A stretch of DNA of 64,000 bases from Advenella sp. S44 (GTDB taxonomy: Bacteria; Pseudomonadota; Gammaproteobacteria; Burkholderiales; Burkholderiaceae_B). Made by a program: the position numbers and the translations under genes. The stretch covers positions 992,001-1,056,000 of the forward strand of contig NZ_NEXS01000003.1 in the NCBI RefSeq assembly GCF_002810445.1. The letters are read 5' to 3'. Position 1 is the first letter of the stretch, and each line of letters starts with the position of its first letter. Of the stretch, positions 8,258 through 59,270 are shown piece after piece. The notes under the pieces are model-generated. The model made no database searches, had not been told where the DNA came from, and saw only the letters and a list, made by a program, of their open reading frames with translations.

Positions 8258-8276
8258 CTGACCGACTTTGACCGAC

Positions 8277-8411: not shown

Positions 8412-8452
8412 GCGGTACGCTCACGCATCCCAGAGGCTTTCTGCATCGCTGC

Positions 8453-8965: not shown

Positions 8966-8983
8966 GAACGGAAGAGGGGAATC

Positions 8984-9133
8984 GATTTCTATCAGCTCAG
9001 CGATCAAGTTTCGTTGCCGCTGAACATGAATAACCTGTTCAATAAAAAATACGACGACCAAATTGGATTTTACAGCCAGGGTGCGTGGGGCGAGCCACGC
9101 AATGTCATGGCCACGCTGAACTATAAGTACTGA
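8984..9133 (+). pseudogene. C-terminal fragment of a TonB-dependent siderophore receptor
   Basis: The 49-codon frame ends a beta-barrel: DFYQLSDQVSLPLNMNNLFN, KKYDDQIGFYSQGAWGEPRN, then VMATLNYKY and stop. NLFNKKY and the final Tyr-x-Tyr strand are hallmarks of the last strands of FpvA/FhuE-type receptors. Everything upstream of this stretch is missing. Together with the two preceding fragments it marks a lost siderophore locus. Confidence 0.75.
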
Positions 9134-9331
9134 ATCCGGTGCTCACTTTCAGTGTTGATGTCGGCGTGGGGCACACGAGTTCCGGCACGAAGGGGCAATC
9201 GGGCTTTCGTGCTCAGCTAACCACGGAGGCACTTTGTGCCGGCGACCCAGGCATGATAATTCCGTTTCACTGTCTTATTTTTGCATCAGACGGCCCGTTA
9301 TAGCCTTAAACGCAATTAAATAAGGCGATAT

Positions 9332-9346
9332 TGAGAATGATTCTGA
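9332..9346. promoter_or_regulatory. Fur box upstream of TonB receptor
   Basis: TGAGAATGATTCTGA is a 7-1-7 inverted repeat with one mismatch, close to the TGATAATGATTATCA core bound by Fur. It lies about 207 bases before the receptor start at 9554, with no other intact gene between. Iron-repressed expression of the receptor is the natural reading. Confidence 0.7.
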
Positions 9347-9479
9347 TTATAATTCACTATTTCATCGTTAATTGAACGATCGAATGTGCCGGGAGAGTGA
9401 GCCAAATCAGTGGGGTTCACCACCCGGTGAGCGTGACCACGCCAAGTGATGGCGACCCTCAGCTCACAATACAGAACAT

Positions 9480-9516
9480 GCCTGTCTTTGTTCAATGGAT
9501 AAAGACAAAGACAGGC
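9480..9516. promoter_or_regulatory. Perfect 12-bp stem-loop in the receptor leader
   Basis: GCCTGTCTTTGT at 9480-9491 is exactly complementary to ACAAAGACAGGC at 9505-9516 with a 13-base loop. It ends 37 bases before the receptor ATG and is not followed by a T-run, so it is not a standard terminator. It could be an RNA control element, a processing site or a dyad operator. Confidence 0.5.
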
Positions 9517-9553
9517 TCCATTGCAGATTCAATCATCGGACTTACGCCAGATC

Positions 9554-11737
9554 ATGACATCAACTTCAAACCCCTCCCGTTTATTGATATTGCGCGCTTT
9601 GCCTCTGGCGCTGTTTGCATCGGCGAGCTCGGTCTATGGACAGACCGTGTCGGCGCCGGTATCGGCTCCCGCGACCCAATTGGAAGCGATCAATGCTACC
9701 GACGAGAACGTTTCTGTATCGGTACCCACACCGCCAGCTTACCCGGGAGGCCAGGTGGGTACGGGCGGGCAGGCGGGGATTCTGGGCAATGCAGATAACA
9801 TGAGTTCCCCGTTTATTGTTAACAGCTATACCGCCAAATTGATTGAAGATCAGCAGGCTCGTACGTTAGGCGATGCCATCAAGAATGATCCGACGGTGCA
9901 GGTCGGCAACGGTTATGGCAACTTTGCCGAAACATTTGTGATACGCGGTTTTCCGTTGAACAACGATGACCTTGCATTCAATGGGTTGTATGGTATTTTG
10001 CCGCGCCAGGTATTGCCCACTGAAATGGTTGAACGCGTCGAAGTCTTCAAGGGGGCCAGCGCCTTTCTCAACGGTGCAGCGCCAGGCGGCAGCGGCCTGG
10101 GCGGCCTGATTAATATTCAGCCCAAGCGGGGCACCGACGATCCGCTAACTCGCCTGAATGTGGACTACACCGGACGGGGGCAAGTGGGTGGCGGCGTGGA
10201 CATTGGTCGACGCTGGGGCGATGCGGGCCAATTCGGGGTTCGGGTCAACGCCGCTCATCGCGATGGCCAGATGTCTACCAAAGATGCCGATTCACGAACC
10301 TCGGTGCTTACGCTCGGACTGGATTATCGTGGCGAGCGATTGCGTGCGTCGCTGGACGTCGGCTACCAGAACATTCGCTATGACCACGCGCGGCCGACTA
10401 TCAACCTGACTGGTGACGGTGTACCCGATGCGCCATCGAGCAGTGTCAATTACGCACAGCGCTGGGCCTGGTCTAAACTGCAAAGCACCTATGCCGTTGC
10501 CAGAGCCGAATATGATTTGTCCGAAAACTGGATGGCCTACGCTGCCGTAGGAACCAGTCACGATAAAGAAGACGGCCTGTACTCGGGCGCTACAGTCAAT
10601 GGCAATGGCATTGGCTCACACAGCCCCTTGCGTACGCCCTATGAGCGCACTTCAGTCACTGGTGAAGTGGGCTTACGAGGCCACTTTATGACCGGTTCCG
10701 TGGGTCACCAGGTTAACCTTGGTGTGTCGGCCTTGCGCACAAGCAATCACAGCGCCTATCAGTTTTTTGCCAGTCAGGATCGGGATATTTTCAATCCGAT
10801 AGACTCCCCGTACCCTGAGCAAATCACGTCATCTGGCGGCGATATCGACAACCCCGGCAAGGTGGATCGCTCCATTCTGCGCAGCATTGCCTTGTCCGAT
10901 ACACTTTCGTTCCTGGATGAGCGCATTCTGCTGACACTGGGCATGCGGCACCAGAATCTGCGCCACACCGCTTATGATTACTCGGGCGCCGCTTCCTCAG
11001 ATTACGACAAATCGATTATTACGCCGTTTTTTGGCGTGGTCTTCAAGCCACTGAACAATGTGTCGCTGTACGCCAATTATATTGAAGGCCTGACTCGTGG
11101 CGAGACAGCCCCGCTCACTGCAGACAACCGTAATGAAGTCTTCAAGCCGGCACGTACCAAGCAGATTGAGGCTGGCGTCAAAGTTGATATGGGAGACTAC
11201 GGCGCCAGCCTGGCGGCGTTTCAGCTTGAGAAGCCGGAATTCTATCTGGATAACGAGACCAAAATTTTCAGTGCGGCCGGAGAACAACGCAACCGCGGTA
11301 TCGAGCTTAGTGTTTATGGCCAGCCAACAGAAGGGGTCAGGCTGGTCGGTGGTATGACGTTGATGAATGCCCGTCTGCAGAAAACTCAGGATGGTCTCAG
11401 TGACGGCAACCATGCGCCGGGTGTTCCCCGGTTTCAGGCGACCATGGGTGCCGAATGGGATCCTGCCTTCGCGCCAGGTCTGACATTGCAGGGCTATGCC
11501 ACATATCGCGGCAAGCAGTATGTGAATAAGGAAAACGAGGGGACTGTAGCCGCCTGGACTCGAGTAGATTTGGGTGCCCGATACACGACTAAACTGGCCG
11601 GCAAAGAAACTACCTTCCGGTTCGGAATTGACAATGTATTCAATAAACGCTACTGGGCAACGGTTGCGCCGCAGTTCGGCCAGCTCACAGCCGGCAATGG
11701 CCGGACGGTGAAAGCATCAGTATCGCTGTCGTTCTAG
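9554..11737 (+). CDS. TonB-dependent siderophore receptor
   Basis: A 727-residue outer-membrane receptor. A signal peptide (residues 1-31, ending VYGQ) is followed by a plug domain without an N-terminal signalling (STN) domain: LGDAIKNDPTVQVGNGYGNF, FVIRGFPL, VEVFKGASAFLNGAAPGGSGLGGLINIQPKR. The barrel ends with FNKRYWATVAPQFGQL and a C-terminal phenylalanine (SVSLSF). ATG 9554 was chosen over the in-frame TTG at 9521 since it begins the signal peptide. With the Fur box and the ABC/PepSY operon upstream it probably brings in a metal chelate; the ligand is unknown. Confidence 0.92.
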   Translation: MTSTSNPSRLLILRALPLALFASASSVYGQTVSAPVSAPATQLEAINATDENVSVSVPTPPAYPGGQVGTGGQAGILGNADNMSSPFIVNSYTAKLIEDQQARTLGDAIKNDPTVQVGNGYGNFAETFVIRGFPLNNDDLAFNGLYGILPRQVLPTEMVERVEVFKGASAFLNGAAPGGSGLGGLINIQPKRGTDDPLTRLNVDYTGRGQVGGGVDIGRRWGDAGQFGVRVNAAHRDGQMSTKDADSRTSVLTLGLDYRGERLRASLDVGYQNIRYDHARPTINLTGDGVPDAPSSSVNYAQRWAWSKLQSTYAVARAEYDLSENWMAYAAVGTSHDKEDGLYSGATVNGNGIGSHSPLRTPYERTSVTGEVGLRGHFMTGSVGHQVNLGVSALRTSNHSAYQFFASQDRDIFNPIDSPYPEQITSSGGDIDNPGKVDRSILRSIALSDTLSFLDERILLTLGMRHQNLRHTAYDYSGAASSDYDKSIITPFFGVVFKPLNNVSLYANYIEGLTRGETAPLTADNRNEVFKPARTKQIEAGVKVDMGDYGASLAAFQLEKPEFYLDNETKIFSAAGEQRNRGIELSVYGQPTEGVRLVGGMTLMNARLQKTQDGLSDGNHAPGVPRFQATMGAEWDPAFAPGLTLQGYATYRGKQYVNKENEGTVAAWTRVDLGARYTTKLAGKETTFRFGIDNVFNKRYWATVAPQFGQLTAGNGRTVKASVSLSF

Positions 11738-11759
11738 TTGTCTTATCGGTTGTGTTCAG

Positions 11760-11792
11760 CCCGGCGACACGAACCCTCTTCGTGCTGCCGGG
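11760..11792. terminator. Strong stem-loop between convergent genes
   Basis: CCCGGCGACACGAA pairs with TTCGTGCTGCCGGG across a five-base loop, 14 positions with two mismatches. It lies 23 bases past the receptor stop and before the 3' end of the convergent hydrolase gene. There is no clear T-run on either side, so it may act as a transcript-end stabiliser rather than a classical terminator. Confidence 0.5.
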
Positions 11793-11850
11793 ATGGCCCT
11801 GCCGGTTGTCGCAGTCGTATGGCAATCCCTGAGCGCGCCGGCGCCAGGAT

Positions 11851-12792
11851 TCAAAATGTGTCGATCGGGATCTTCAGGTAGCGCACGCCATTGGCCTCAG
11901 GTTCGGGCAGCTTGCCGCCGCGAACATTGACCTGAATGGATGGCAACAGGAGTTTTGGTGTGGAAAGCGTCGCGTCCCGCTCGGTGCGCATTGCCACGAA
12001 CTCCGATTCAGAGATGCCTTCGTGCACATGGACGTTATGCCTGCGTTCGGCCTCAATGGTGGTTTCCCATGCGAACTCGTCGCGCCCGGGTGCCTTGTAG
12101 TCATGACACATGAAGACCCGAGCCTCGCCGGGTAAACGAAGCAGGCGTTGAATGGAGCGATACAGGGTACGGGCATCGCCTCCGGGGAAATCACATCGTG
12201 CCGTGCCGTAATCAGGCATGAAAAGCGTATCGCCAGCAAATACGCAGTCGCCGATGATATAAGCCAGGCACGCCGGCGTGTGACCGGGGACATGCAGGAC
12301 CGTTGCAGGCAGACTGCCGATCATGAAAGCGTCGCCGTCCTCGAACAGATGGTCAAAATCGTCGGCGGTGCCCGATTGCGCGCCTTGGGTGTTGAAGATG
12401 CTTGCAAAGGTGCGCTGAACCTGTCCGATGTGCTTGCCGATAGCCAGTTGTCCGCCCAGCTCGTGGGTCAGAATCGGCGCAGCCGACAGATGATCGGCAT
12501 GGGCATGCGTCTCAAGAAGCCATTGCACTTGCAACTGCTTGGATCGTACGTAATCAATGATTTTCTGCACCGACCGGGTTGCCGTTGTGGCCGAAGATGC
12601 GTCGTAGTCCAGTACGCTGTCAATGACCGCACACTGTCCATTATTTTGGGCATGTACGACGTAGCTGATGGTATTGGTGGCCTCGTCAAAAAAGCTTTTT
12701 ACAACGGGAACTTCAAGCGGATTCTTGCGAGCTTCTGCGACTTGTTGCGATGCCTTCTGGCACGCCGGATCATGAGACAGGTCAGACAACAT
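11851..12792 (-). CDS. MBL-fold hydrolase, persulfide dioxygenase-like (Blh/ETHE1 type)
   Basis: A 313-residue metallo-beta-lactamase-fold protein. The metal motif THAHADH is at residues 95-101, with further ligands in VPGHTPA, FAGDTLF and CHDYKAPG. The single-iron ETHE1/Blh group of glutathione persulfide dioxygenases shares exactly this pattern and the YGTARCDFPGGDARTLYRSI stretch. It would oxidise persulfide sulfur to sulfite, fitting a sulfur-oxidising organism, although the sox genes are 20 kb away. The ATG is preceded by CCGGAGG. No rhodanese or SQR gene adjoins it. Confidence 0.85.
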   Translation of the reverse strand: MLSDLSHDPACQKASQQVAEARKNPLEVPVVKSFFDEATNTISYVVHAQNNGQCAVIDSVLDYDASSATTATRSVQKIIDYVRSKQLQVQWLLETHAHADHLSAAPILTHELGGQLAIGKHIGQVQRTFASIFNTQGAQSGTADDFDHLFEDGDAFMIGSLPATVLHVPGHTPACLAYIIGDCVFAGDTLFMPDYGTARCDFPGGDARTLYRSIQRLLRLPGEARVFMCHDYKAPGRDEFAWETTIEAERRHNVHVHEGISESEFVAMRTERDATLSTPKLLLPSIQVNVRGGKLPEPEANGVRYLKIPIDTF

Positions 12793-12935
12793 AGTGGCCT
12801 CCGGGTTACAGGAAGAGTGGCTTTAAAAGCGGGCTTTAATTACTATGAGTAATAAATATATATGAAAATATAATAACAAATTAGCCCATAAATATCAGGA
12901 CGTTGCTGCAGTTCAATAATATTCACTGATGGCGG

Positions 12936-13784
12936 TCAGTCGCTTTTAAGTGCGGAGGAAGCGGTACATCCAACGGTTGGGGAAAACGACACCTCAAGCG
13001 TTTGCGGGTGCTTGCAAGCGCGCGACACTGATGCGGCATAGCGTTGCGCGCTCGGGTGCCGGTCGTGCCAGACATGGAAACTGCCGACGATCAAGAATGT
13101 GCCCAGCACCGGAATCAGTAAACCGCTTGCAGACAGGTTGTGAATTTTTCCGGCGTAGTATCTTGCACCCGCGACACATAGAATCAATGTGCTGATCAGC
13201 ACGCCGCCCAGCACATCTGAAAACCAGTGCGCGCCAAGATACACGCGTGAGAAGGCAACGGTAAGTGCAAATACCATTGCCCCGCACAGTACGATAATCC
13301 GACCGCGCCTGCCAAGACAAGGATAAAGCAGAATGCTAAGCAAACCATACAGCACAATATTTGTTGTAGTATGGCCACTGGGAAAGGAATAGGTGGTCCA
13401 GCCGGAATACATCATGTCGCCGGGCCGGGCCCGCACTACCGCCGCCTTGATGGTCGTATTGACAACGGCAGCGGTGATAAGAGTGCCTCCCCAGTAAAGC
13501 GCCGTCCGCCAGGATTTCTTAAGTAACAACCATATTTGAACAATGGATGCGATGGCCGTGATCATGAACGTATCGCCCAACTGCGTCACCGTAATCAATA
13601 TCTGGTCCAGCCATGGCGTGCGCAGCAACTGAAGCTGCCGATAAATGGTTTGGTCAAGGGCAAACAGTCTGCCCTCCATGCGGACATTCAGCAGGATCAG
13701 CAGAAACAGGGCGCAGGCCAGCGCCGCAAGATAATAGGACCAGTATGATCGGGTGTGCGTCAGCGTAAACGGAGAGATGGTCAT
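12936..13784 (-). CDS. PAP2-family membrane phosphatase
   Basis: A 282-residue inner-membrane protein with about six spans and the three phosphatase motifs of the PAP2 superfamily: KAAVVRARPG, SFPSGHTT and SRVYLGAHWFSDVLGG, with the catalytic histidines in the last two. Members dephosphorylate lipid phosphates such as undecaprenyl pyrophosphate or phosphatidic acid; the substrate cannot be told. The last 40 residues after the final span are unusual and soluble. The AmpC-like gene starts upstream on the same strand, 15 bases between stop and start, so they may be co-transcribed. Confidence 0.88.
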   Translation of the reverse strand: MTISPFTLTHTRSYWSYYLAALACALFLLILLNVRMEGRLFALDQTIYRQLQLLRTPWLDQILITVTQLGDTFMITAIASIVQIWLLLKKSWRTALYWGGTLITAAVVNTTIKAAVVRARPGDMMYSGWTTYSFPSGHTTTNIVLYGLLSILLYPCLGRRGRIIVLCGAMVFALTVAFSRVYLGAHWFSDVLGGVLISTLILCVAGARYYAGKIHNLSASGLLIPVLGTFLIVGSFHVWHDRHPSAQRYAASVSRACKHPQTLEVSFSPTVGCTASSALKSD

Positions 13785-13799
13785 TTTGCGGGCGTCTTT

Positions 13800-14966
13800 C
13801 TACTGTGAGTCCAGCGCTGTCAGTATGCGGTGAGCCAGCGCCACACGAACTGCATTGGGATAGTTCTTATTGGCCAGTATGACGATACCCAGCTTGCGTG
13901 CCGGTACGAAGGCAATATAGGCTCCAAATCCGTTGGTGGACCCTGTTTTATTAATCCATACATCGTCGCGCGGCGCCATGGGCGGCACCAGCGCTTTCAC
14001 CGGCTGGGGCGTAAGTGCAAATTCGGCCGAATTCCCGTGCAACAGGGACTCAAGTGCGACGGGGTACGGATATTGCTCCCAGATCAGATCCTGCGTCAAG
14101 GCTGCCGTCTGAAAATAGCCGGTATGAGTATCTTTAACGGCTCGTTGCAAGCGATCATCAATGTCGATCATCTGCATATTGGCCTGTAGAAAGCGCAGCA
14201 TATCTTTGCCTGTCGACTTTGCGCCATATGCTTGCGCCCACAGAACCGCCTTGCTCACACGCACTGGCGTGTCCTGTTTGTCGTAGCCCTGGGCGTAATT
14301 GCCCATCAATTTTTCAGGAATATCAATAAAGGTCTCGGCCAGCCCAAGGCCGCCATATATCTGTTCTTGCATCAAGGGGATAAACGCCTGGCCCATCGCC
14401 TTGGCCGTAATCATCCCCAGCATGCCAATGGCGGGGTTGGTATAGGTTCTTTTTGTACCGGTTTCAAACGGTGGTTTCCACTGTTGCAGATAGGACATCA
14501 ACTGATCATTATTCTGGATATCGTCGGGCACCTGTAGCGGGAAACCTCCGGGCGTATGGGTACCCAGCTGCATCAGGCTGACAGCGCCAAATGCGGTATC
14601 TTTCATTTGCGGCAGATGATGCGAAACAGTGTCGGATAGCTTCAGATGTCCCAGCACCTGCGCATAGCTTGCCAGCGTCGCAGTAAACGTTTTGCTGATC
14701 GAACCGAGCTCAAAAAGGGTGGACGCAGTCACGGGGGCGCCGGTTTGTCTGGAGGCGACGCCATAGTTGAACAGATAACCCTGCTGGCCAGAGATAATGC
14801 CGACAGACATGCCGGGAATATGGTGAGTCTCCATGACCGGTGCGATGGATGCGTCCACCAGTTGCCGAACCGTGGGCTGGTTAGGTGCGGCGTGGCCGGT
14901 TGTCAAGGTTATCACGCCTGTCATCAAGGTAATCGAGCAAAGCAGCGGGAGTGAGTGAATGTTCAT
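13800..14966 (-). CDS. Class C (AmpC-like) beta-lactamase family protein
   Basis: A 388-residue periplasmic serine hydrolase with signal peptide (residues 1-26). The catalytic Ser89-x-x-Lys92 is in ELGSISKT, the tyrosine motif reads Tyr176-Thr-Asn178 in place of the usual YAN/YSN, and the KTG box is at 341-343 (NKTGSTNGFGAY). The STNGFGAYIAFVPARKLGIVILANKNYP stretch is typical AmpC. It would hydrolyse cephalosporin-type beta-lactams. There is no adjoining ampR, so induction by that route is not evident. The start at 14966 places the signal peptide correctly. Confidence 0.92.
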   Translation of the reverse strand: MNIHSLPLLCSITLMTGVITLTTGHAAPNQPTVRQLVDASIAPVMETHHIPGMSVGIISGQQGYLFNYGVASRQTGAPVTASTLFELGSISKTFTATLASYAQVLGHLKLSDTVSHHLPQMKDTAFGAVSLMQLGTHTPGGFPLQVPDDIQNNDQLMSYLQQWKPPFETGTKRTYTNPAIGMLGMITAKAMGQAFIPLMQEQIYGGLGLAETFIDIPEKLMGNYAQGYDKQDTPVRVSKAVLWAQAYGAKSTGKDMLRFLQANMQMIDIDDRLQRAVKDTHTGYFQTAALTQDLIWEQYPYPVALESLLHGNSAEFALTPQPVKALVPPMAPRDDVWINKTGSTNGFGAYIAFVPARKLGIVILANKNYPNAVRVALAHRILTALDSQ

Positions 14967-49600: not shown

Positions 49601-50593
49601 CTAATCGACTTTGATCCCGAGCTGACGGATCAACGGCGCCCACCGATCCATTTCGCTTCGTATGAACACGTCCAGCTCCTCAGGCGTGGAGCTGACCAGT
49701 TCCATGGCTGAAAGACGATCCCCCAAACCGGGAAGCCCTACAATGCGTCGGATTTCCGTGTTGAGCTTCTCAACGATGTCGGGCGGTGTGCCAGCGGGCG
49801 CAAGCAGGCCAAGCCATTCTGTCGTAACCACATCTATCCCTTGTTCCTTAAAGGTAGGAATATCGGGCATGGACGGATAACGTTTCTCAGATGAAATACC
49901 TAAAGGTTTGACTTTCCTGTTTTTATATTGCTCCCACGCCTGGCCTACGGTCGCGAACGTCATGGGTATATGGCCCGCCATTGTGTCCAAGAGGGCCGGC
50001 GTCCCGCCTTTGTATACGACATGCTGGATGTCTATTCCTGTCTTCTGTTTCATCAGTTCAGCCGTCAGATGCGTCATGGACCCCGTGCCGGCGGATCCGA
50101 AGCTGATGACATTCGGTTTGCGTTTGGCCAACGCAACCAGTTCGGTCAGATTATTCGCTTCAAAGCCGGGATTGGCATAGGCCACAATAGGCGTACGAGC
50201 CATCAGGCTGATGGGTTGAAAATCCTTGAGCGTGTCATAGGGCATCGTCGAGCGCATAGCCGGATTGGTCGTGTGATTGCTGACGGAAATAATGAGCGTA
50301 TAACCGTCCGCCGGCGATCGAGCCAGTGCGGTCGTTCCGATCAGCGTGGATGCTCCGGGTCGCAATTCAACCAGGACTGGCTGCCCCCAATGCTCCTGCA
50401 TTTTCTGGCTGATCACGCGTGCAAACGTGTCTACCGGCCCGCCCGCCGCAAAGGGCACGATAATCCTGATCGGCTTTTCCGGGTACTTGTCAGCTGCTGA
50501 CTGTGCGAATGGGGCGCTTGTCATACACAGGCCGATTGTCGTGGCGACTGACACCACGAGTGTTCGACGTTTGATATTTGTCGTCATCTCCAT
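49601..50593 (-). CDS. Bug/TctC-family solute-binding protein
   Basis: A 330-residue periplasmic binding protein with signal peptide (to about residue 30, ending FAQ). It shows the YPEKPIRIIVPFAAGGPVDTFAR and VYKGGTPALLDTMAGHIPM stretches of the family. Starts at 50593 or 50587 are both possible; AAAGGAC precedes the former. It heads an operon with the nitroreductase, perhaps for uptake and reduction of a nitro or quinone-type acid, which is speculative. Confidence 0.92.
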   Translation of the reverse strand: MEMTTNIKRRTLVVSVATTIGLCMTSAPFAQSAADKYPEKPIRIIVPFAAGGPVDTFARVISQKMQEHWGQPVLVELRPGASTLIGTTALARSPADGYTLIISVSNHTTNPAMRSTMPYDTLKDFQPISLMARTPIVAYANPGFEANNLTELVALAKRKPNVISFGSAGTGSMTHLTAELMKQKTGIDIQHVVYKGGTPALLDTMAGHIPMTFATVGQAWEQYKNRKVKPLGISSEKRYPSMPDIPTFKEQGIDVVTTEWLGLLAPAGTPPDIVEKLNTEIRRIVGLPGLGDRLSAMELVSSTPEELDVFIRSEMDRWAPLIRQLGIKVD

Positions 50594-50677
50594 GTCCTTT
50601 GGAAGGTTGTTGTGTTTTGTGCCGCAAAAGCCATTGCATCGGCCGATTTTATTGAGCGTATTATATCGGCGTATTTT

Positions 50678-50714
50678 TCGAAATATGATGCTTCAGTATT
50701 TCGATATTCGAAAC
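50678..50714. promoter_or_regulatory. Inverted repeat upstream of the Bug-nitroreductase operon
   Basis: TCGAAATA at 50678-50685 and TATTTCGA at 50697-50704 form a perfect inverted repeat with an 11-base spacer, followed by TATTCGAAAC at 50705-50714. It is 85 bases before the Bug gene start and looks like an operator with repeated half-sites. The regulator is not in the neighbourhood. Confidence 0.5.
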
Positions 50715-50879
50715 ACTATTTTTCCTTTATGGCCGGAGGCAATAGGTGTATTACGCTGTTTGAAGAACACCCGGCGAAGCCGTAGTAAGGCTGTAAATAT
50801 AGCCCTTGCTATCGTGGTCGTCCCTTTCTTTAGTCGTTCACGCCAAGACAATAACGCAAATCATTCTGGTATTTTTAAC

Positions 50880-50894
50880 TGTTATGTTATAACA
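50880..50894. promoter_or_regulatory. Zur box
   Basis: TGTTATGTTATAACA matches the zinc-uptake regulator core TGTTATAATATAACA at 14 of 15 positions if either A or T is allowed at position 8. It lies 65 bases before the receptor start at 50959, the right place to repress the operon when zinc is plentiful. Confidence 0.78.
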
Positions 50895-50958
50895 TTGCAA
50901 TTTTTGCCGCTTGAACATCAGCATTGACCTGATGCGATGGCGTCGAGTCGATAGCGCG

Positions 50959-52977
50959 ATGAAAACCGGATTTGCCATGAATAATCGAAGTAAGGTCGCA
51001 GCCAGCCTGATTGCGTTGCTAGTGTGGAGCACTGGCGTCTGCGCTCCGTCCGCGCCTATGGAAGAGGGGCGGCAAAACGAAAGCAACTCGGGCGCTCTAC
51101 TGCCAAAGCATGATGACGTAACGATCCTACCCAGCGTTGTGGTGACTGCGACTGCCAATGAAAGGGCTCCCGACAATGTACCTGCCAGTATTGCTGTTGT
51201 CGGGGGCGACGACCTGCGCCGGCGCCCCGTGAACGATCTGGCAGACGCGCTTCGGGGCGCAGAAGGAATCAGTCTGGAAGACGTGGGCCAGGGCCGCCGG
51301 GGTATTTCGATTCGGGGCATGAGCAGCGAACATACCCTGATGCTGGTGGATGGACAGCGAATCAGCGCATCTGCCTCTGCTATTGCGCATTCGGATTTCG
51401 AACTGGGCTGGGTGCCCGCTGAAGCCATCGACCGGCTGGAAGTCGTACGCGGGCCGATGTCTTCCTTATACGGCTCAGAAGCGCTTGGCGGCGTCGTTAA
51501 CGTTATTACTCGTGCGCCGACCGATCACTGGACCGGGTCTTTGAGCAGTTACGCCCTCGCCACCGATCATGGTCTGGGTGGCAACCAATATAAAAACGGA
51601 TTTTACATTGCCGGACCGCTGATACCGGGTCAACTGGGCCTGAGCGCCTGGGGCGAAGTCAGACGCCGTCATATGTTGCACGATGCGTCCAGCCCGGCAC
51701 TAAGCGCCCTGGACCGGCAGCGTGCTGTTACCGGACATCTTGGGCTAAGCTGGACGCCAGACGCACGCCAGCGTATCGACCTGACGATAGATGCGGTTAA
51801 CGAGGATCAGACAGGCTTACACGCCGGAACCCGCAATATTCCGTATCAATCCGACAATGAGATTCAGCGTCGCCGTTACGCTTTTACACATACCGGCCAG
51901 TGGAGCTGGGGAAACAGCCGTGTCCGGCTGTATCGCAGCACACTTGACCGACAGATCTGGCGCAGCGACGGGGATCAGGCCAGCGGCCCCAACCGATTCG
52001 TCGATACTGTCTTCGATACCCAGGCAAGTTTTTCTCCCGTTTCTGCACATCGGCTCACGGTAGGCGGGCAGCTAAGAAGAGAAAGCCTGCAAGATCCGAA
52101 TGTAAACCGTCAGGGAAAGAAAGCGCAGGCCCATCAGGCGTTCTTTGTGCAGGACGAGATGACGCTTGGCAGTCACTGGGAACTGGTGTTGGGCAGCCGT
52201 TTTGACCGACATGATAGTTTCGGTTGGGAGATCAGTCCTCGTGCCTATGTGCTTTTTCACCCGCTGGATGGGTTGGTATTGAAGGCCGGGGTCGGGCGTG
52301 GATTTAAAGCACCTACCCTTAAGCAGTTATCGCCGGAGTTCGAATCCTGGGCAGCGATGGGCGGGCGGGGCGTTATCCGCGGCAATCCCGATTTGCAGCC
52401 GGAAACGAATCTGTCGTACGAACTGGGTGCGACCTATGAGGCTGATAGCTGGTCGGCAGCAGCGACTTTTTTCCATAACAATGTACGCAACTTGATTGAT
52501 ACCGTCAGGCAGCCCACTTGTTTTGCTCCCGGTCGTGTCTGTCTGGCGTACGAAAATGTGGCCAGGGTTCGCTTGCAAGGCGTGGAATTGACTGGTGGCG
52601 CCGATCTTTCCGCAAGTTGGCGACTGGATGCCAACTATACCTATCTGGATGCTCGCGACCGGATAACCGGGGAACCGATGCCCGATCGTTCCCGGCATCG
52701 TGCTAATGCCACATTGGCCTGGAAACCGCTGGCGTCCTTGTCTACGCGTGTGCAGCTTGAGTATATAGGCGCCCAAGTTCGCCAAGACCAGGAAGGCAAG
52801 CGTCCAGGCTATGCAATGTTGCACTGGTATTTGGATTACGACCTGAACCGCAATCTCAGTGTGCAGCTCGGTGTAGAGAACCTGACGGATAAGCGGCTGG
52901 CCAACGATGATATTGGTCTTTTTAGCCGGGCAGACGAGGGGCGGCGCTATTTTGTCGGCATGCGGGTGCAGTTCTGA
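50959..52977 (+). CDS. TonB-dependent receptor of a zinc-uptake operon
   Basis: A 672-residue outer-membrane receptor. Signal peptide to about residue 29; TonB box near ILPSVVVTATANE; plug motifs LADALRGAEGISLEDVGQGR, GISIRGM and VEVVRGPMSSLYGSEALGGV-type (RLEVVRGPMSSLYGSEALGG); the barrel ends GRRYFVGMRVQF. It resembles CirA/ZnuD-like receptors more than siderophore ones. ATG 50959 was preferred; 50977 is possible. It is followed without gap by the CobN-like gene, and the Zur box upstream argues for zinc rather than cobalamin. Confidence 0.88.
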   Translation: MKTGFAMNNRSKVAASLIALLVWSTGVCAPSAPMEEGRQNESNSGALLPKHDDVTILPSVVVTATANERAPDNVPASIAVVGGDDLRRRPVNDLADALRGAEGISLEDVGQGRRGISIRGMSSEHTLMLVDGQRISASASAIAHSDFELGWVPAEAIDRLEVVRGPMSSLYGSEALGGVVNVITRAPTDHWTGSLSSYALATDHGLGGNQYKNGFYIAGPLIPGQLGLSAWGEVRRRHMLHDASSPALSALDRQRAVTGHLGLSWTPDARQRIDLTIDAVNEDQTGLHAGTRNIPYQSDNEIQRRRYAFTHTGQWSWGNSRVRLYRSTLDRQIWRSDGDQASGPNRFVDTVFDTQASFSPVSAHRLTVGGQLRRESLQDPNVNRQGKKAQAHQAFFVQDEMTLGSHWELVLGSRFDRHDSFGWEISPRAYVLFHPLDGLVLKAGVGRGFKAPTLKQLSPEFESWAAMGGRGVIRGNPDLQPETNLSYELGATYEADSWSAAATFFHNNVRNLIDTVRQPTCFAPGRVCLAYENVARVRLQGVELTGGADLSASWRLDANYTYLDARDRITGEPMPDRSRHRANATLAWKPLASLSTRVQLEYIGAQVRQDQEGKRPGYAMLHWYLDYDLNRNLSVQLGVENLTDKRLANDDIGLFSRADEGRRYFVGMRVQF

Positions 52978-55900
52978 TGCGATTATTACGAATCATACTG
53001 CACATGTGTTATTACCTGTTCATCGGCTTGGCAAGTCTTGCCCCTGTCTGCGTGTCTGCTAGTCCAGTGGTGCAGGTCCTGCACAATAGTTTTGTCTCGG
53101 CAGAAAAGTTCCGGCACCTGCAGTCTTTGGCCGCAGGGCAGGGATTGCGATTGCAGCATCAGAATGTTGAGTCCGCATCGCCACAGGCGTTAAGTGCAGC
53201 CGTCGCTGACGCGGCACTTACCGTGCTGGATGTGCCCCGCCCGGGTGACCGGTCAATGGTCGAGCAACGGCTGGCACAAGCACTAAATCAGCACAAGAGC
53301 CGCGCTGCGACCCGCTTGACAGTTGGCGGCGGCCAGCCCGCCTGGCACGGCCTGGCGGCGCCCGTGGGTGAGGTATTGGCTGAACTTTATGTGGCAGGCG
53401 GTCAAGCCAATTATTCACGTTTTTTCACGTTGCTCAGATCAATTCATGAAGGCGTGGCGCCATCCCCAGATTTGCTGGCGCCACCTGAAAAACCGCCTGC
53501 CACAGGTTTTTATCATCCGCAAGCACCACATACCCTGGACAATATACAGTCCTATCTGAATTGGTATGCGTCTGCGGTTTCCGCCTCAGTCAAAGGGCCT
53601 ACTTCCATGGGCCGGGTCGCGTTTTTAATTTCCCGACAAATGGTGACCGGTTTCGTGACCAGCGAAGTAGATGCGCTGATTCGCCGTAGTGAGGCTGCCG
53701 GCTTGTTGCCTATCGTTTTCTGGGCTGATGCTGACGATCCGAAAGGATTTCAGGCAGCATTGCAAAACGCTGGCGTGGATGTGCTGGTTAACTTGACGCA
53801 TATGCGAGGCGGCGCCCGGCGCACGCGTGATTTCAAGGCGTTGAATGTCCCGGTGATTCAGACACTGCATTTTCGCGAGGGCGACGCAGCGGACTGGCCA
53901 GCCGCAGCCAGTGGCGTTAACGCACGTACTGCCGCAGTTTTCCTGGCGGGGCCCGAAGGGTGGGGCGTTAGCGATCCGTTGGTGCTGTCTGCTGCAACTG
54001 CGGGCGTAGACAAACTGCTGCCGCAACAAGCGGAAGCTTTGATCGGTAAATTGCAAGCTTTGGTGGCCTTGCGACACACAAGCGCTGCAGACAAACGACT
54101 GGCGCTAATGTTCTGGAACTACCCGGCCGGTGAAAAAAACCTGGGCGCATCCCATCTGAATGTGCCTCGCAGTATTGTTTCTATTCAGCGTGCATTGGCG
54201 CAGCAGGGTTATGCGGTGGGCGATCCCGTAAGCGAAAGCGAGGTCATCGAGAAAGGCCAGCGTATGTTGGGCGCCCTGTATGGCAGCGTATCGCTGGATG
54301 CATTACTGACAGAAGATCTGGCGGCGCTGTATCCGCTGGCTGACTATGAAAGCTGGCTCTTGAGCCTGCCCGAGGAGCGGCAGACACAATTGCGCCATCA
54401 GGGCCCGCCTGGTGAACATCGTGCGATAAGATTAATCGATGGCCAGCGCTACTTCGTCATTCCCAGGTGGAAGATTGGGCACCTGCTGGTCATGCCGCAA
54501 ATGCCGCGGCATCCTGATGCGGCCAGGCATTACCATGACACCGCGAGCGTACCCGACCATCTGTATATGGCCGCTTACCGGTATGTACAAAAACAGTATG
54601 CCGCCCATGCGCTCATTCATCTGGGCACGCATGGTACGCAGGAGTGGCTGCCTGGCAAGGATCGGGGCCTGGCGGCCAGCGACTATCCCTGGCTGGCTGT
54701 GGGTAGCATGCCAGTGTTCTATCCCTATATTCAGGATAACGTTGGCGAAGCCATCCAGGCCAAGCGGCGCGGGCGGGCAGTGACGATCAGTCATCAGACG
54801 CCTCCGTTTGCGCCTGCCGGACTATACGACCAGATGCGCGATCTGCACCACCTGATTCATGAGTATCAGCAGCTTGATGAAGGGGCCGTTCGTCAACAAG
54901 TGGCCTCGCATATCCTGGAGGCGGCGTTCGAGGCGAATCTGCATCGGGATCTGGGTTGGAGTAATGAGCAGGCCGAACGAGATTTTCCGGGCTTTATTCA
55001 GGCAGTCCATGACCAGTTGCATGAATTGGCGCGGACCGCCATGCCGCTTGGACTACATACTTTTGGGCAGCCGGCGAGCGACGAGCACCGGGCCAGCACG
55101 ATCATGCAACAGCTCGCAGATCCATTCTATGCAGCCGTGGGGATCGACAGGCAAGAGCTGTTTGCCCAGGATCACAAGGACCTGAACAATAATCCTGCCT
55201 ATCTTGCAGTACGTCAGTTGCTCAATGCGGACCGACAGCCTGCGGTGTCTGAGCCAATTGCCGCCTTTGCCGATCGCGCCAGGGAGCAGGACCGGCGTTT
55301 ACGCGACACCCAGGAAAATGAGGCTTTGCTGGCTGGCCTGGCAGGCCGATTCATTGAGCCGGGCGCCGGCGGCGATCCCGTGCGCAACCCGGATGTCATG
55401 AGCGGACGCAATTTATATGCCTTCGAGGCCGATAAGGTCCCCGCCAAATCAGCTTATGATTCGGCTGCTACGGCATATGACCAACTTGTTCAGGCATTCC
55501 GTTCCGCACATGGCGGCCAGTGGCCGCGCAAACTGGCATTCAGCTTGTGGTCGTCCGAGGCGATTCGTCACTTGGGAATGACCGAGGCACAAATTCTGCA
55601 CGCGCTTGGCTTACGTCCGGTCTGGGACGCAGGTGGACGTGTCACTGCGCTGGATATTATTCCGCGTAGCGAACTGGGCCGGCCCCGCACCGATGTCGTG
55701 ATTCAGATTACCGGCGTATATCGCGACCAGTTCGACAGTTTTATCCGCCTGCTGGATGACGCCCTGGCGCGGCTGGCCACATTGGACGAGCCTGGTAATC
55801 CGATTATTGCCAACAATAAGCGTATTGCTGCCTCTTTGCATGAAGCGGGGATGCCATTGGAGCAGGCAGCCGCCGCGGCCAGCGCACGTATTTTTGGCAA

Positions 55901-56915
55901 CGCCCCGGGGCAGTACGGCACGGGCGTGCCCGATCTGGCCTTGCGCTCTACCGAATGGAATGATGACGCCGAACTGGCGCAGCGCTTTCTGGCTAGCAGC
56001 AAATACGCATACGGCAGCCAGCAGTGGGGCAGCGCCCCGGCAAAAGCCAATCTGCTGGCGCAGCAGCTGCGCGGCACACAGGCCGCCATTATGTCGCGGT
56101 CCTCCAATCTTCATGGGGTGCTCTCAACCGACCATCCGTTTGAGTTTCTGGGGGGATTGTCGTCGGCCGTGCGGCATCTTGACGGCCAGGCCCCGCAACT
56201 GCTGATTTCGGATTTGCGCGACGGCCAGGTAAAAACGACCGGATTGCCGCGCTTTCTTGCCAACGAGATGCGCGCGCGTTATCTGAACCCGCAATGGATA
56301 GCTTCCATGCAGCAGGAAGGGTATGCCGGTACGCTGCAAGTGCTCAATGTCACGAACAATCTATTTGGCTGGCAGGTCATGGACCCGGAAGCGGTGCGAG
56401 ACGACCAATGGCAGGCCATGTTCGATACCTATGTCAATGATACGCGGGACCTGGGCACCAAAGAGTGGTTCGAGCAGCACAATCCGACGGCGCAGGCGCA
56501 GATACTCGAACGGATGGCAGAAGCCATGCGCAAAGGGTACTGGGATGCATCGGAGCAGACGCAGCGCGAACTTGTCCAGCGCTGGCAACAACTGGCTGAA
56601 CAGTTCGACGTTCAGACTGGAGCCCAGCAGACGCGCCGCTATATTGCCGAGCTTGCACAGGGATTTGGCTTGAACTCCGGAACGGCGCCCGACATGGACA
56701 CCGCTGCACCCGCCGAGCCCTTGCCCGAAAGCCAGGCGCCGGCGGGGCAGCAATTAGAAGCGGTGCAAGGCCAGGTGCTGGAGCGGGTGCAAGTGTCGCC
56801 CGAGCCTTCATCCGAGACTTCACGGGTATTGCTTCTGTTGCTGTTTGTCGCCATGGCGGGTGCAGTGCGGCAATGGCGCGCCGGCCGTGCGCCCGAGCGC
56901 GTGATACCGATTTGA
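52977..56915 (+). CDS. CobN-like chelatase subunit with export signal and membrane anchor
   Basis: A 1312-residue protein related to CobN, the large subunit of cobaltochelatase (PLYGSVSLDALLTEDLAALY; GTHGTQEWLPGKDRGLAASD; NNLFGWQVMDPEAV; AIMSRSSNLHGVLSTDHPFE). Unlike cytoplasmic CobN it has a signal peptide (residues 1-29, ending VSAS) and a C-terminal membrane span (VLLLLLFVAMAGAV) with a short basic tail, so it should be periplasmic and tethered. The start ATG overlaps the receptor stop (TGATG). No CobS/CobT ATPase partners occur; the ExbB/D-like genes next may supply energy instead. Confidence 0.9.
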   Translation: MRLLRIILHMCYYLFIGLASLAPVCVSASPVVQVLHNSFVSAEKFRHLQSLAAGQGLRLQHQNVESASPQALSAAVADAALTVLDVPRPGDRSMVEQRLAQALNQHKSRAATRLTVGGGQPAWHGLAAPVGEVLAELYVAGGQANYSRFFTLLRSIHEGVAPSPDLLAPPEKPPATGFYHPQAPHTLDNIQSYLNWYASAVSASVKGPTSMGRVAFLISRQMVTGFVTSEVDALIRRSEAAGLLPIVFWADADDPKGFQAALQNAGVDVLVNLTHMRGGARRTRDFKALNVPVIQTLHFREGDAADWPAAASGVNARTAAVFLAGPEGWGVSDPLVLSAATAGVDKLLPQQAEALIGKLQALVALRHTSAADKRLALMFWNYPAGEKNLGASHLNVPRSIVSIQRALAQQGYAVGDPVSESEVIEKGQRMLGALYGSVSLDALLTEDLAALYPLADYESWLLSLPEERQTQLRHQGPPGEHRAIRLIDGQRYFVIPRWKIGHLLVMPQMPRHPDAARHYHDTASVPDHLYMAAYRYVQKQYAAHALIHLGTHGTQEWLPGKDRGLAASDYPWLAVGSMPVFYPYIQDNVGEAIQAKRRGRAVTISHQTPPFAPAGLYDQMRDLHHLIHEYQQLDEGAVRQQVASHILEAAFEANLHRDLGWSNEQAERDFPGFIQAVHDQLHELARTAMPLGLHTFGQPASDEHRASTIMQQLADPFYAAVGIDRQELFAQDHKDLNNNPAYLAVRQLLNADRQPAVSEPIAAFADRAREQDRRLRDTQENEALLAGLAGRFIEPGAGGDPVRNPDVMSGRNLYAFEADKVPAKSAYDSAATAYDQLVQAFRSAHGGQWPRKLAFSLWSSEAIRHLGMTEAQILHALGLRPVWDAGGRVTALDIIPRSELGRPRTDVVIQITGVYRDQFDSFIRLLDDALARLATLDEPGNPIIANNKRIAASLHEAGMPLEQAAAAASARIFGNAPGQYGTGVPDLALRSTEWNDDAELAQRFLASSKYAYGSQQWGSAPAKANLLAQQLRGTQAAIMSRSSNLHGVLSTDHPFEFLGGLSSAVRHLDGQAPQLLISDLRDGQVKTTGLPRFLANEMRARYLNPQWIASMQQEGYAGTLQVLNVTNNLFGWQVMDPEAVRDDQWQAMFDTYVNDTRDLGTKEWFEQHNPTAQAQILERMAEAMRKGYWDASEQTQRELVQRWQQLAEQFDVQTGAQQTRRYIAELAQGFGLNSGTAPDMDTAAPAEPLPESQAPAGQQLEAVQGQVLERVQVSPEPSSETSRVLLLLLFVAMAGAVRQWRAGRAPERVIPI

Positions 56916-56963
56916 TCTGCAGCCATCGCCATTTTCTCTTTTACCGTTTTCCGAGACCGTCTT

Positions 56964-57473
56964 ATGGACTTTTTTGCCAATATCGAACAGCTGCTTTACG
57001 CCGTTTCCCGTGTTTTTCTTATGCCGATCCTGTTTCTGATCGTCTTGTCGCTGCTTTATGCAGTTGCAATGCTGGGCGCTTTCCTGGTCGAAGGCTGGCA
57101 ACGGCGGGGGCAGGGCAGTGCAGACCGACTGGTGATGCAGGCCAGGCACTATTTACAGCGTCAGGTGATTACGTCGGCCGATTTGGAGCTGTACATCTTG
57201 AAGCGGCTGGAATGGCTGCGCATTGTGTCGCGCACTGCGCCAATGCTGGGCCTGATTGCGACCATGATCCCGATGGGGCCGGCTTTACTGGCACTGGGCA
57301 ATGGCGATGCGACTGAAGTGGGTAAAAACATGGTGGCGGCATTCTCGGCCGTTATTCTCGCCCTGCTGGCTGCCAGCCTTTGCTTTTTCATCCTTATAAT
57401 ACGCCGCCGCTGGCTGCTGCAGGATCTGCATCAAGCTGAACGCAGTATGCTCTCTCAAGAGGAGTCTGCCTGA
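56964..57473 (+). CDS. TolQ/ExbB-like proton channel protein
   Basis: A 169-residue inner-membrane protein with three spans: about residues 15-38, 84-104 (MLGLIATMIPMGPALLALGNG) and 118-140. The TAPMLGLIATMIPMGPAL region is the MotA/TolQ/ExbB core. It should form a proton-driven motor with the DUF2149 protein, with which it shares one base (stop and start overlap). It is shorter than true TolQ. Confidence 0.9.
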   Translation: MDFFANIEQLLYAVSRVFLMPILFLIVLSLLYAVAMLGAFLVEGWQRRGQGSADRLVMQARHYLQRQVITSADLELYILKRLEWLRIVSRTAPMLGLIATMIPMGPALLALGNGDATEVGKNMVAAFSAVILALLAASLCFFILIIRRRWLLQDLHQAERSMLSQEESA

Positions 57474-57799
57474 TGCGCTTTCTTGACGACGACGACACCG
57501 ATCCGATGCTCTCGGTGGTCAATCTCATTGATCTGTTCCTGGTGATCATCGGGCTGTTGATGATTATCATTGCCCAGAATCCGCTGGGCCCGTTAGCCAG
57601 TGAAAACGCAGTCCTTGTGGAAAACCCGGGCCAATCTGATATGCGCATCACAATCAAAGAAGGCAAGGAGCTGACACGCTACGAATCCAGCGGCAAAGTT
57701 GGTCAGGGGCAGGGTGCACGCGCGGGCGTAACGTACCGTCTGGATGACGGGCGGATGATTTATATTCCCGAAGATAAGGAAAAGCCAGCAAACAAGTAG
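57473..57799 (+). CDS. DUF2149 protein, ExbD/TolR-like
   Basis: A 108-residue protein with one membrane span at about residues 16-36 (LSVVNLIDLFLVIIGLLMII) containing an aspartate where ExbD and TolR have the essential proton-carrying acid. The C-terminal domain is periplasmic. The DPMLSVVNLIDLFLV pattern is typical of DUF2149. It is the partner of the TolQ-like channel and last gene of the Zur-boxed operon. Confidence 0.88.
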   Translation: MRFLDDDDTDPMLSVVNLIDLFLVIIGLLMIIIAQNPLGPLASENAVLVENPGQSDMRITIKEGKELTRYESSGKVGQGQGARAGVTYRLDDGRMIYIPEDKEKPANK

Positions 57800-57950
57800 T
57801 GTGAGCGATGGTGCACTGAGTCAGTTTGGCGAGACTATTTCCAATAAAAATTAATTGATCCAAGGGTAAACCCCTATTTGCATACCTATGCAAGAAATCG
57901 AACATAAGGTCAATTCCATTTTTTATAGCCATGCCAAAGACCAAACCATT

Positions 57951-59270
57951 ATGATCCAATACCTGAAACGCGGCCGCTCGGCACAAGTCAAAACCGATGA
58001 TGATGCGAAGGTGCGCGCCACTGTCGAAGACATTATTCGTCATATCGAACAAGACGGGGACGAAGCTGTCCGCCAGTACAGCCGCAAGTTCGACAATTGG
58101 GACCCGGAAGACTTCCGGCTGTCTCGTGACCAGATTGCCGCAGCGCGCAAGCAACTGTCTGCGCGCGAGATCGAGGATATCGCTTTTGCCCAGGAACAAG
58201 TTCGCAATTTCGCGCAAATTCAGCGTGATTCCATGAAGGATGTGGAAGTGGAGACATATCCCGGCGTCGTGTTAGGCCATAAGCACATCCCAATGAATGC
58301 GGTGGGCTGTTATATTCCCGGCGGCAAGTACCCCTTGCTGGCATCTGCCCATATGAGTGTGCTGACCGCAAAAGTGGCGGGCGTCAAGCGCGTGGTGTCT
58401 ACCGCGCCACCGTATCAGGGCAATCCGCATCCAGCCATTGTGACGGCGATGGACATGGCAGGCGCTGACGAAATTCTGGTGCTTGGGGGCGTGCAGGCCG
58501 TTGTGGCCATGGCAGTTGGCACACCCAGCGTCGCCCCGGTGGATATGCTGGTCGGGCCTGGCAATATGTTCGTGGCCGAGGCCAAGCGCCAGTTGTATGG
58601 TCGCGTGGGTATCGACCTGTTTGCCGGGCCCACCGAAACGCTGGTGATTGCCGATGATAGTGTCGACGGCCAGTTGTGCGCCGTTGACCTTCTCGGCCAG
58701 GCAGAGCATGGCCCGACCTCGCCAGCCGTATTGCTGACCACCAGCGAAAAGCTGGCGCGCGACACGCTGGCCGAGATCGAACGCCAATTGACGATACTGC
58801 CCACGGCCGCCATTGCCCGGCAAAGCTGGGACGATTGCGGTGAAGTTATTCTCTGCGATACGGATGAAGAAATGCTTCGTGTGGCCGATGAACTGGCTTT
58901 TGAACATGTGCAAGTGATGACCCACGACGTGGATTATTTCCTCAAAAACATGACGAACTATGGCGCGCTGTTCCTGGGGCCACGTACCAACGTGAGTTTC
59001 GGCGACAAGGTCATCGGCACCAATCATACGCTACCTACTAACCGCAACGCTCGCTATACCGGTGGTTTGTGGGTTGGCAAGTTTCTGAAGACCTGCACGT
59101 ATCAGCGCGTGCTCACCGATGAGGCCAGCGTGACCATGGGCGAGTATTGTTCGCGCTTGTGTCATATGGAAAATTTTGCGGGCCACGGTGAGCAGGCAAA
59201 CATCCGGGTGCGTCGTTATGGCAATCGTCCCGAGTTGCCTTGGTATGAACCGGTAAGGGATCAGGCATGA
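57951..59270 (+). CDS. Histidinol-dehydrogenase-like enzyme, HpsN-like
   Basis: A 439-residue NAD-dependent dehydrogenase of the HisD superfamily. Zinc and catalytic positions are kept: [10 protein letters not shown] (Gln, His), FEHVQVMT (Glu, His), [14 protein letters not shown] (Asp) and [10 protein letters not shown] (Glu, His). Its neighbours are not histidine genes, so a paralogue such as sulfopropanediol 3-dehydrogenase HpsN is more likely. ATG 57951 is favoured ([10 protein letters not shown] is a typical opening), although the frame is open to 57888; neither has a strong ribosome-binding site. Overlaps the SDR gene by four bases. Confidence 0.8.

What the first reader, a model, noticed from the sequence alone, without database searches (positions are those of the whole stretch)
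50880..57799. Zur-boxed receptor, periplasmic CobN-like protein and ExbB/D-like motor
A near-consensus Zur box heads a gapless operon encoding a TonB receptor, a 1312-residue CobN-like protein, a TolQ/ExbB-like protein and a DUF2149 ExbD-like protein. The CobN-like protein has a signal peptide and a C-terminal membrane anchor, no ATPase partner is present, and the DUF2149 span keeps a central aspartate. This suggests a proton-motive-force-driven machine that strips or moves zinc in the periplasm rather than cobalamin synthesis. Related zinc-responsive gene sets exist in pseudomonads (PA1922-PA1925), but the mechanism is not described to my knowledge.
Basis: partly seen in the sequence, partly recalled or inferred. 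Interest (0 to 1): 0.75.

Follow-up and report, generated by a model that had tools for sequence, protein, structure and literature searches.

The report
Zinc-starvation operon with periplasmic metal-stripping enzyme
This is a zinc-starvation operon whose giant "CobN-like" protein looks like a cousin of a recently described bacterial enzyme that pulls iron out of heme, which suggests that these bacteria may harvest zinc by pulling it out of imported ring-shaped pigments rather than make vitamin B12 with it.

Summary
In detail: TonB receptor, 1312-aa CobN-like protein, MotA/TolQ/ExbB protein and DUF2149 protein, headed by a Zur box. Only three places in this genome (genus Advenella) match the box pattern exactly; the other two head ZnuA-family and ZinT genes. 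The gene set recurs across Pseudomonadota, with the box in 50 of 71 usable named loci. B12 synthesis is unlikely: the marker CbiC is absent. The closest solved sequence is the periplasmic heme dechelatase HmuS; a Bacteroides hmu operon also carries ExbB and DUF2149 genes. The zinc clade keeps HmuS's catalytic His pair, Glu and one heme-site His, where solved CobNs have Asp/Gln at the second position. One relative has an HmuS-type gene beside znuA and a Zur-like gene. Best reading: a Zur-controlled, anchored periplasmic dechelatase freeing zinc from an imported tetrapyrrole, helped by a proton motor. Zinc control and chelatase fold are well supported; substrate and motor coupling are inferred. 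It is a zinc-wired variant of the HmuS/BtuS kind; Zur control of the P. aeruginosa counterpart is published, but I found no paper making the dechelatase link.

The parts
50880..50899 (+). Zur box (TGTTATGTTATAACA at 50880-50894, overlapping second register 50885-50899)
   Evidence: exact form at 3 places in the genome, the others at ZnuA-family and ZinT genes; found upstream of many orthologues
50911..52977 (+). TonB-dependent receptor, CirA-like (listed ORF; likelier start ATG 50959 or 50977)
   Evidence: PF00593, PF07715; nearest solved sequence colicin I receptor
52977..56915 (+). CobN/HmuS-like class I chelatase-fold protein with signal-peptide-like N-terminus and C-terminal anchor; His552 and His1053/Glu1056 align with HmuS His538 and His1209/Glu1212; His275 with HmuS His254
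   Evidence: PF02514; HmuS best sequence match in PDB; residues; AlphaFold model of residues 29-1215 pLDDT 86.6, Foldseek to CobN and HmuS
56964..57473 (+). MotA/TolQ/ExbB family protein (HmuU-like)
   Evidence: PF01618; family conservation
57473..57799 (+). DUF2149 protein (HmuV-like), one predicted span with Asp20
   Evidence: PF09919; D20 86 of 86

Best explanation
A Zur-repressed zinc-scavenging operon. Seen in the sequence: Zur box, receptor, an exported-looking and anchored CobN/HmuS-type protein, ExbB-like and DUF2149 proteins. Inferred: under zinc starvation the receptor brings a metallated tetrapyrrole (most likely a zinc porphyrin such as zinc coproporphyrin) into the periplasm; the CobN/HmuS-type protein holds it between His552 and His1053/Glu1056 and protonates the ring so that the metal leaves; freed zinc goes to ZinT/ZnuA and an ABC importer. 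The ExbB-like/DUF2149 pair is a proton-driven stator-type motor that works on the dechelatase (opening/closing or product release), in place of the CobS/CobT or ChlI/ChlD ATPases of cytoplasmic chelatases.
For: Zinc: exact box at only 3 places, the others at ZnuA-family and ZinT genes; box within 2 mismatches near the receptor start in 50 of 71 usable named loci, density 127-fold over the rest of the same loci, 0 of 750 shuffled windows; weight-matrix hit in 66 of 80 named loci (31 of them its training set), but in only 1 of 23 sister-group loci scored (L142). Dechelatase: HmuS is the best sequence match; a Bacteroides hmu operon shares CobN-ExbB-DUF2149; H552 88/88, H1053 87/88, E1056 87/88, H275 84/88 in the zinc clade, Asp/Gln at 1053/1056 in solved CobNs; an HmuS-type gene sits in a znuA/Zur-like locus with Zur boxes (L162). 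Motor on the chelatase rather than on TonB: Trichlorobacter has a separate ExbB-ExbD-TonB set beside its ExbB-DUF2149-CobN; a Comamonadaceae plasmid has ExbB-DUF2149-CobN with no receptor in the stretch shown; DUF2149 occurs in the archaeon Methanosarcina acetivorans (control), which has no outer membrane (general knowledge). B12: CbiC absent, no riboswitch in the window.
Against: No biochemistry; the substrate is not shown. HmuS's Met79 ligand and Met-rich insertion are absent, and the zinc clade is not in the HmuS branch. Foldseek ranks M. tuberculosis CobN first by E-value, HmuS first by TM-score. The receptor resembles CirA (catecholate) more than heme receptors. A second Zur-boxed lineage (L155-L157) has lost both His residues, so zinc control does not require that chemistry. 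21 of 71 usable named loci have no box within 2 mismatches, 14 of 80 no matrix hit. The HmuS authors assign HmuU/HmuV to powering heme import through HmuR. The DUF2149 model is poor (pLDDT 63.6) and finds no ExbD/TolR fold. The genome holds a CobS/CobT-like pair.
Confidence: 0.42

Rival explanations
1. Free zinc (or a simple zinc chelate) is imported by the receptor; the ExbB/DUF2149 pair energises the receptor, and the CobN-like protein is only a large periplasmic zinc-binding chaperone. This is close to the current view for PA1922-PA1925.
For: Reviews take PA1922 as a free-zinc importer (PMC10393844, PMC8456098, passages); the HmuS authors assign the homologous HmuU/HmuV to powering the receptor; zinc control is clear; a receptor like ours is adjacent to the CobN-like gene in 75 of 80 named loci, and an unlike TonB receptor in one more that was checked.
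Against: Does not explain the conservation of the chelatase cavity; ExbB-DUF2149-CobN occurs with no receptor in the stretch shown and beside a separate ExbB-ExbD-TonB set; DUF2149 is present in an archaeon (control).
Confidence: 0.27
2. Cobalt salvage: the system strips cobalt from corrinoids so that cobalt can stand in for zinc when zinc is scarce.
For: Cobalt relieves zinc starvation in P. aeruginosa and represses the Zur regulon (PMC13083405, title and passages); cellular cobalt rises in a znuA mutant (PMC4542158, passages); related systems carry cobalamin riboswitches (L045, L061, L062) or lie in a B12 salvage cluster.
Against: The zinc clade has His/Glu where solved CobNs, most of the sister group and the B12-cluster protein have Asp/Gln; no cobalamin riboswitch in the window.
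Confidence: 0.15
3. Heme dechelatase placed under Zur: it removes iron from heme, and the benefit under zinc starvation is indirect (released porphyrin as a zinc chelator, or iron for zinc-sparing enzymes).
For: Shares HmuS catalytic residues and operon core.
Against: HmuS's Met79 heme ligand and Met-rich insertion are missing. Whether Fur boxes are present was not searched.
Confidence: 0.1

Closest known systems
HmuS heme dechelatase and the hmuYRSTUV operon (Bacteroidota; PDB 9d26, PMC12583661)
   Same: Same fold; counterparts of His538, Asp1208, His1209, Glu1212 and site-1 His254 kept; terminal membrane anchoring; operon core receptor-CobN-ExbB-DUF2149
   Different: Zur box; no HmuY or HmuT gene in the operon; no Met-rich insertion; Met79 not kept; separate branch of the tree
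PA1922-PA1925 zinc operon of Pseudomonas aeruginosa (PMC4542158, PMC8531726)
   Same: Zur-controlled receptor plus CobN-like plus an ExbD-annotated and a hypothetical gene, as published
   Different: Function there is left open or taken as free-zinc import; PA1923 itself was not compared by sequence here
[quoted passage not shown]
   Same: Periplasmic, anchored CobN-like protein predicted for metalloporphyrin salvage
   Different: Studied there for heme iron in Bacteroides fragilis; the word zinc does not occur in that text
CobN of the aerobic cobaltochelatase CobNST
   Same: Same fold family (PF02514; 7c6o)
   Different: Looks exported and anchored; CbiC absent from the genome; His/Glu instead of Asp/Gln in the cavity
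ExbB-ExbD / TolQ-TolR stators
   Same: PF01618 partner plus a single-span protein with a conserved membrane Asp
   Different: Pfam matched only DUF2149, and no fold match was found

Membership tests
HmuS heme dechelatase | CobN/Mg-chelatase fold with HmuS as close relative | tested here: met
   best PDB sequence match 9d26 E 2e-124; Foldseek TMq 0.82, highest listed
HmuS heme dechelatase | Catalytic His538 and second His1209 with Glu1212 | tested here: met
   H552 88/88, H1053 87/88, E1056 87/88 in the zinc clade
HmuS heme dechelatase | Site-1 heme ligands His254 and Met79, both | tested here: not met
   His kept 84/88; Met79 not kept (LD-x-P-R-P region); head-domain alignment is weak
HmuS heme dechelatase | Methionine-rich insertion in domain IV | tested here: not met
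   about 45 residues between the two matched blocks against about 213 in HmuS
HmuS heme dechelatase | hmu operon core with ExbB-like and DUF2149 genes | tested here: met
   same core in Bacteroides finegoldii; HmuY and HmuT have no counterpart here
HmuS heme dechelatase | Branches with HmuS | tested here: not met
   the one Bacteroides HmuS used pairs with L162; zinc clade separate; some deep nodes weak
HmuS heme dechelatase | Removes iron from heme | not testable with these tools
   needs purified protein
CobN cobaltochelatase | Encoded in a genome with cobalamin synthesis | tested here: not met
   CbiC/CobH PF02570 absent, found in 7 of 14 controls; one marker only
CobN cobaltochelatase | Cytoplasmic, no signal peptide or anchor | tested here: not met
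   hydropathy of termini in 78 sequences; prediction only
CobN cobaltochelatase | CobS/CobT ATPase partners | tested here: inconclusive
   none in the operon, but a CobS/CobT-like pair elsewhere in the genome
Zur regulon member | Zur box at the promoter, conserved in relatives | tested here: met
Zur regulon member | Zur binds; zinc-dependent expression | not testable with these tools
   published for PA1922 in P. aeruginosa, not tested for Advenella
PA1922-PA1925 type operon | Sequence orthology with PA1923 | not tested
   no P. aeruginosa locus among the 80 returned; Pseudomonas relatives are
ExbB/ExbD-type stator | MotA/TolQ/ExbB subunit and conserved membrane Asp in the partner | tested here: met
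   D20 86 of 86
ExbB/ExbD-type stator | ExbD/TolR family or fold in the partner | tested here: inconclusive
   Pfam matched only DUF2149; poor model, no fold hit

The most novel reading that the evidence does not exclude
A zinc dechelatase: bacteria import zinc tetrapyrroles and a proton-motive-force-coupled CobN/HmuS-type enzyme pulls the zinc out in the periplasm. More widely, CobN-ExbB-DUF2149 is a metal-stripping machine rewired for iron (hmu), zinc (Zur), cobalt (B12 loci) and perhaps nickel (hyp locus), with His/Glu at the second cavity position marking porphyrin-type substrates and Asp/Gln corrin-type ones.
Probability: 0.33. Interest if true: 0.85.

Novelty: new variant of a known kind. 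Interest (0 to 1): 0.65.

Why it matters
If true, metallated porphyrins are a zinc source for many Pseudomonadota, and a gene set labelled 'cobaltochelatase' gains a directly testable role. It also proposes another job for the ExbB/DUF2149 pair of hmu-type operons, which the HmuS authors assign to powering the receptor: a motor for a chelatase-fold enzyme in a compartment without ATP. It bears on a published statement that Zur control of this operon seems unique to P. aeruginosa among pseudomonads: in the six Stutzerimonas loci measured (of seven in the set) a box lies 312-427 bp upstream of the receptor ORF, outside the 150 bp which that review scanned.

Tried and rejected
Rejected: cobalamin synthesis (CbiC absent; exported look). 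Rejected: chance Zur box. Set lower: free zinc import, cobalt salvage, heme dechelation under Zur (see rivals).

Led nowhere: the DUF2149 model gave no useful fold match. The promoter/terminator scan found no sigma-70-like promoter and no terminator at 50590-51000, and no terminator but one promoter-like match at 57750-57960. Two haloarchaeal plasmid CobN genes proved to lie among B12 genes, with no DUF2149 gene in the stretch shown. A search of the order with the L162 protein gave matches of 28-43% identity in 77 of 349 genomes; its loci L251-L260 were not analysed. Paper searches on zinc porphyrin as a zinc source gave nothing to the point in what was listed; HmuS with Zur listed unrelated texts (20 of 43 shown). 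A reference with wrong coordinates of mine failed and was repeated without that protein. No background rate was measured for the zinc-related neighbours.

Dropped rows: of 146 loci looked at, L060 gave no CobN match; of 145, 142 exceeded 1080 aa and 130 remained after duplicates were removed. The 'zinc clade' (88) was set by how loci were fetched, not by the box; L246 was left out of its counts. In one search, 9 of 80 named loci were left out (no receptor match of at least 35% identity, or too little upstream DNA). In one search, 31 other loci were scored; L050, L053, L062 and L250 were not. The named scan kept the best 80 of 151 relatives.
Full report
What is there. The four ORFs and the box are as described. 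Receptor stop and CobN-like start overlap by one base, as do ExbB-like stop and DUF2149 start; 48 bases lie between the CobN-like and ExbB-like genes. Neighbours are a TctC-family binding protein and a nitroreductase-family protein upstream on the other strand and histidinol dehydrogenase downstream. No Rfam family reaches its threshold in the window, so no cobalamin riboswitch.

Zinc control. With up to 3 mismatches the pattern TGTTATRWTATAACA (recalled consensus) gives fewer matches in the genome than its reversed control (119 against 264), so weak matches mean nothing; but three places match exactly, and they lie upstream of a ZnuA-family gene (closest NCBIfam model AztC, below its cut-off), at the listed start of a ZinT gene, and before this operon. 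A Zur-like gene (111.8 bits; curated cut-off 167 not reached) lies next to a COG0523-type gene and has a two-mismatch match upstream.

Conservation. DUF2149 was found in 22 of 300 genomes of the order (20 over cut-off); in 17 of the 18 loci read out, a CobN-like gene was found with it. CobN relatives of any kind were found in 38 of 250 genomes of the family and 41 of 369 of the class. A scan of named genomes kept the best 80 of 151 relatives (44-81% identity), by their titles from beta-, gamma- and alphaproteobacterial genera such as Advenella, Thauera, Stutzerimonas, Halomonas, Pseudoxanthomonas and Azospirillum. Of these 80, 78 have ExbB and DUF2149 (the other two lie on short contigs) and 75 a receptor like ours; in one of the other five an unlike TonB receptor was confirmed. 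Median gaps are 1, 10 and -1 nt. Of 71 loci that could be used, 50 have a box within 2 mismatches and 30 within 1 near the receptor start; density is 127 times that of the rest of the same loci; 0 of 750 shuffled windows (single-base shuffles) have one. A weight matrix trained on 31 of these sites scores 66 of 80 named loci above the best of 40 shuffled 6-kb stretches; some of the 66 are distant hits, for example in L172 and L185. Of 31 other loci scored, 7 are above: L057 and L058 (members of the zinc clade), L142 (its sister), L155-L157 and L162; the other 24, among them 22 of 23 sister-group loci, are not. COG0523, FUR-family or ZnuA genes lie within the fetched flanks of 16 of 80 (15, 7 and 1), without a background rate.

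What the CobN-like protein is. Pfam sees only PF02514; NCBIfam names it CobN (NF004644, above cut-off), which does not test function. The best sequence match among solved structures is HmuS (9d26, E 2e-124), ahead of ChlH and CobN. An AlphaFold model of residues 29-1215 is good (pLDDT 86.6, pTM 0.84); Foldseek lists CobN 7c6o first by E-value and HmuS 9d26 with the highest query TM-score (0.78 and 0.82). From the HmuS paper (PMC12583661; abstract, introduction, body, heme-site section and the first of two parts of the discussion): His538 is needed for turnover, His538 and His1209 face each other across the cavity, Glu1212 bonds His1209, and Met79/His254 bind another heme. In 88 zinc-clade sequences the counterparts are H552 88/88, D1052 88/88, H1053 87/88, E1056 87/88 and H275 84/88. 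In 25 sister-group sequences position 1053 is D in 21 and H in 4, position 1056 is Q in 19, and only L142 has the site-1 His. The solved CobNs have Asp/Gln there, ChlH has His/Asp. Met79 and the Met-rich insertion are not kept. My inference only: a single axial His suits five-coordinate zinc porphyrin.

Tree. The zinc clade is one branch (support 0.86; 89 sequences with L246), L142 is its sister (0.98), then comes most of the sister group; the Bacteroides HmuS pairs with L162 (1.0). Several deep nodes of the large tree have low support (0.0-0.25); in a smaller tree cytoplasmic CobNs fall outside all ExbB/DUF2149-linked proteins (0.92). So it is a sibling of HmuS, not an HmuS.

A second link of HmuS-type proteins to zinc.

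The motor. DUF2149 has one predicted span with the motif NLIDLFLV and D20 in 86 of 86; the likeness to ExbD's span is recalled. In Trichlorobacter an ExbB-ExbD-TonB set follows receptor-DUF2162-ExbB-DUF2149-CobN; in a Comamonadaceae plasmid ExbB-DUF2149-CobN has no receptor in the stretch shown; DUF2149 occurs in Methanosarcina acetivorans (control). These favour a job at the CobN-like protein but do not prove it, and the HmuS authors draw HmuU and HmuV as powering the receptor. On rereading that passage I lowered the best explanation from 0.45 to 0.42 and the novel case from 0.35 to 0.33, and raised the free-zinc rival from 0.25 to 0.27.

Literature. PA1921-PA1925 are strongly induced in a znuA mutant and a Zur site is predicted (PMC4542158, passages); Zur binds at PA1922 (PMC8531726, passages); proteomics agrees (PMC11761036, passages). 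Reviews take PA1922 as importing free zinc and say that its Zur control seems unique to P. aeruginosa, scanning 150 bp (PMC10393844, passages; PMC8456098, passages); six Stutzerimonas loci have the box 312-427 bp upstream of the receptor ORF, and the seventh, L195, has none within 2 mismatches. BtuS/HmuS background: PMC6460266 and PMC13227078 (passages). Zinc coproporphyrin III occurs in cheese rinds (PMC6104308, passages). I found no paper linking PA1923-type proteins to HmuS-type dechelation in the listings of searches and the passages read; some listings were capped and the library lacks most subscription papers.

Verdict. Zinc control and chelatase fold: well supported. Periplasmic location: likely. 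Dechelatase for a zinc tetrapyrrole: plausible and sharply testable. Motor coupling: suggestive.

Noticed in passing
L270 (Runella slithyformis plasmid), 4287-12321: Receptor, urease-accessory gene, ExbB, DUF2149 and CobN-like gene nested inside a hyp (NiFe hydrogenase maturation) cluster; may be a nickel version of the same machine.
   Followed up: partly
L268 (Trichlorobacter lovleyi plasmid), 3441-14282: B12-related cluster with receptor-DUF2162-ExbB-DUF2149-CobN next to a separate ExbB-ExbD-TonB-receptor set.
   Followed up: partly
L162, 140-9921: HmuS-type gene in a znuA/Zur-like locus with Zur boxes.
   Followed up: yes
L155-L157: Another Zur-boxed CobN/ExbB/DUF2149 lineage in which both catalytic His residues are replaced (Gln and Met); perhaps a binding protein rather than an enzyme. 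Two of the three have a ZnuA-like gene nearby.
   Followed up: partly
L264 5923-8648 (own genome, another contig): CobS/CobT-like pair, below the curated NCBIfam cut-offs, a few kb from a COG0523 gene in a genome without CbiC.
   Followed up: partly
L045, L061, L062: Cobalamin riboswitches in three of the 18 DUF2149 loci of the order that were scanned.
   Followed up: partly
   Followed up: no
window 50911-52977 and relatives: Receptor His160, in the plug domain, is conserved in 70 of 73 aligned receptors and may contact the cargo.
   Followed up: no
L201 3212-5854: In this rhizobial locus the receptor is of an unlike TonB type although CobN-ExbB-DUF2149 are kept: receptor swap.
   Followed up: partly
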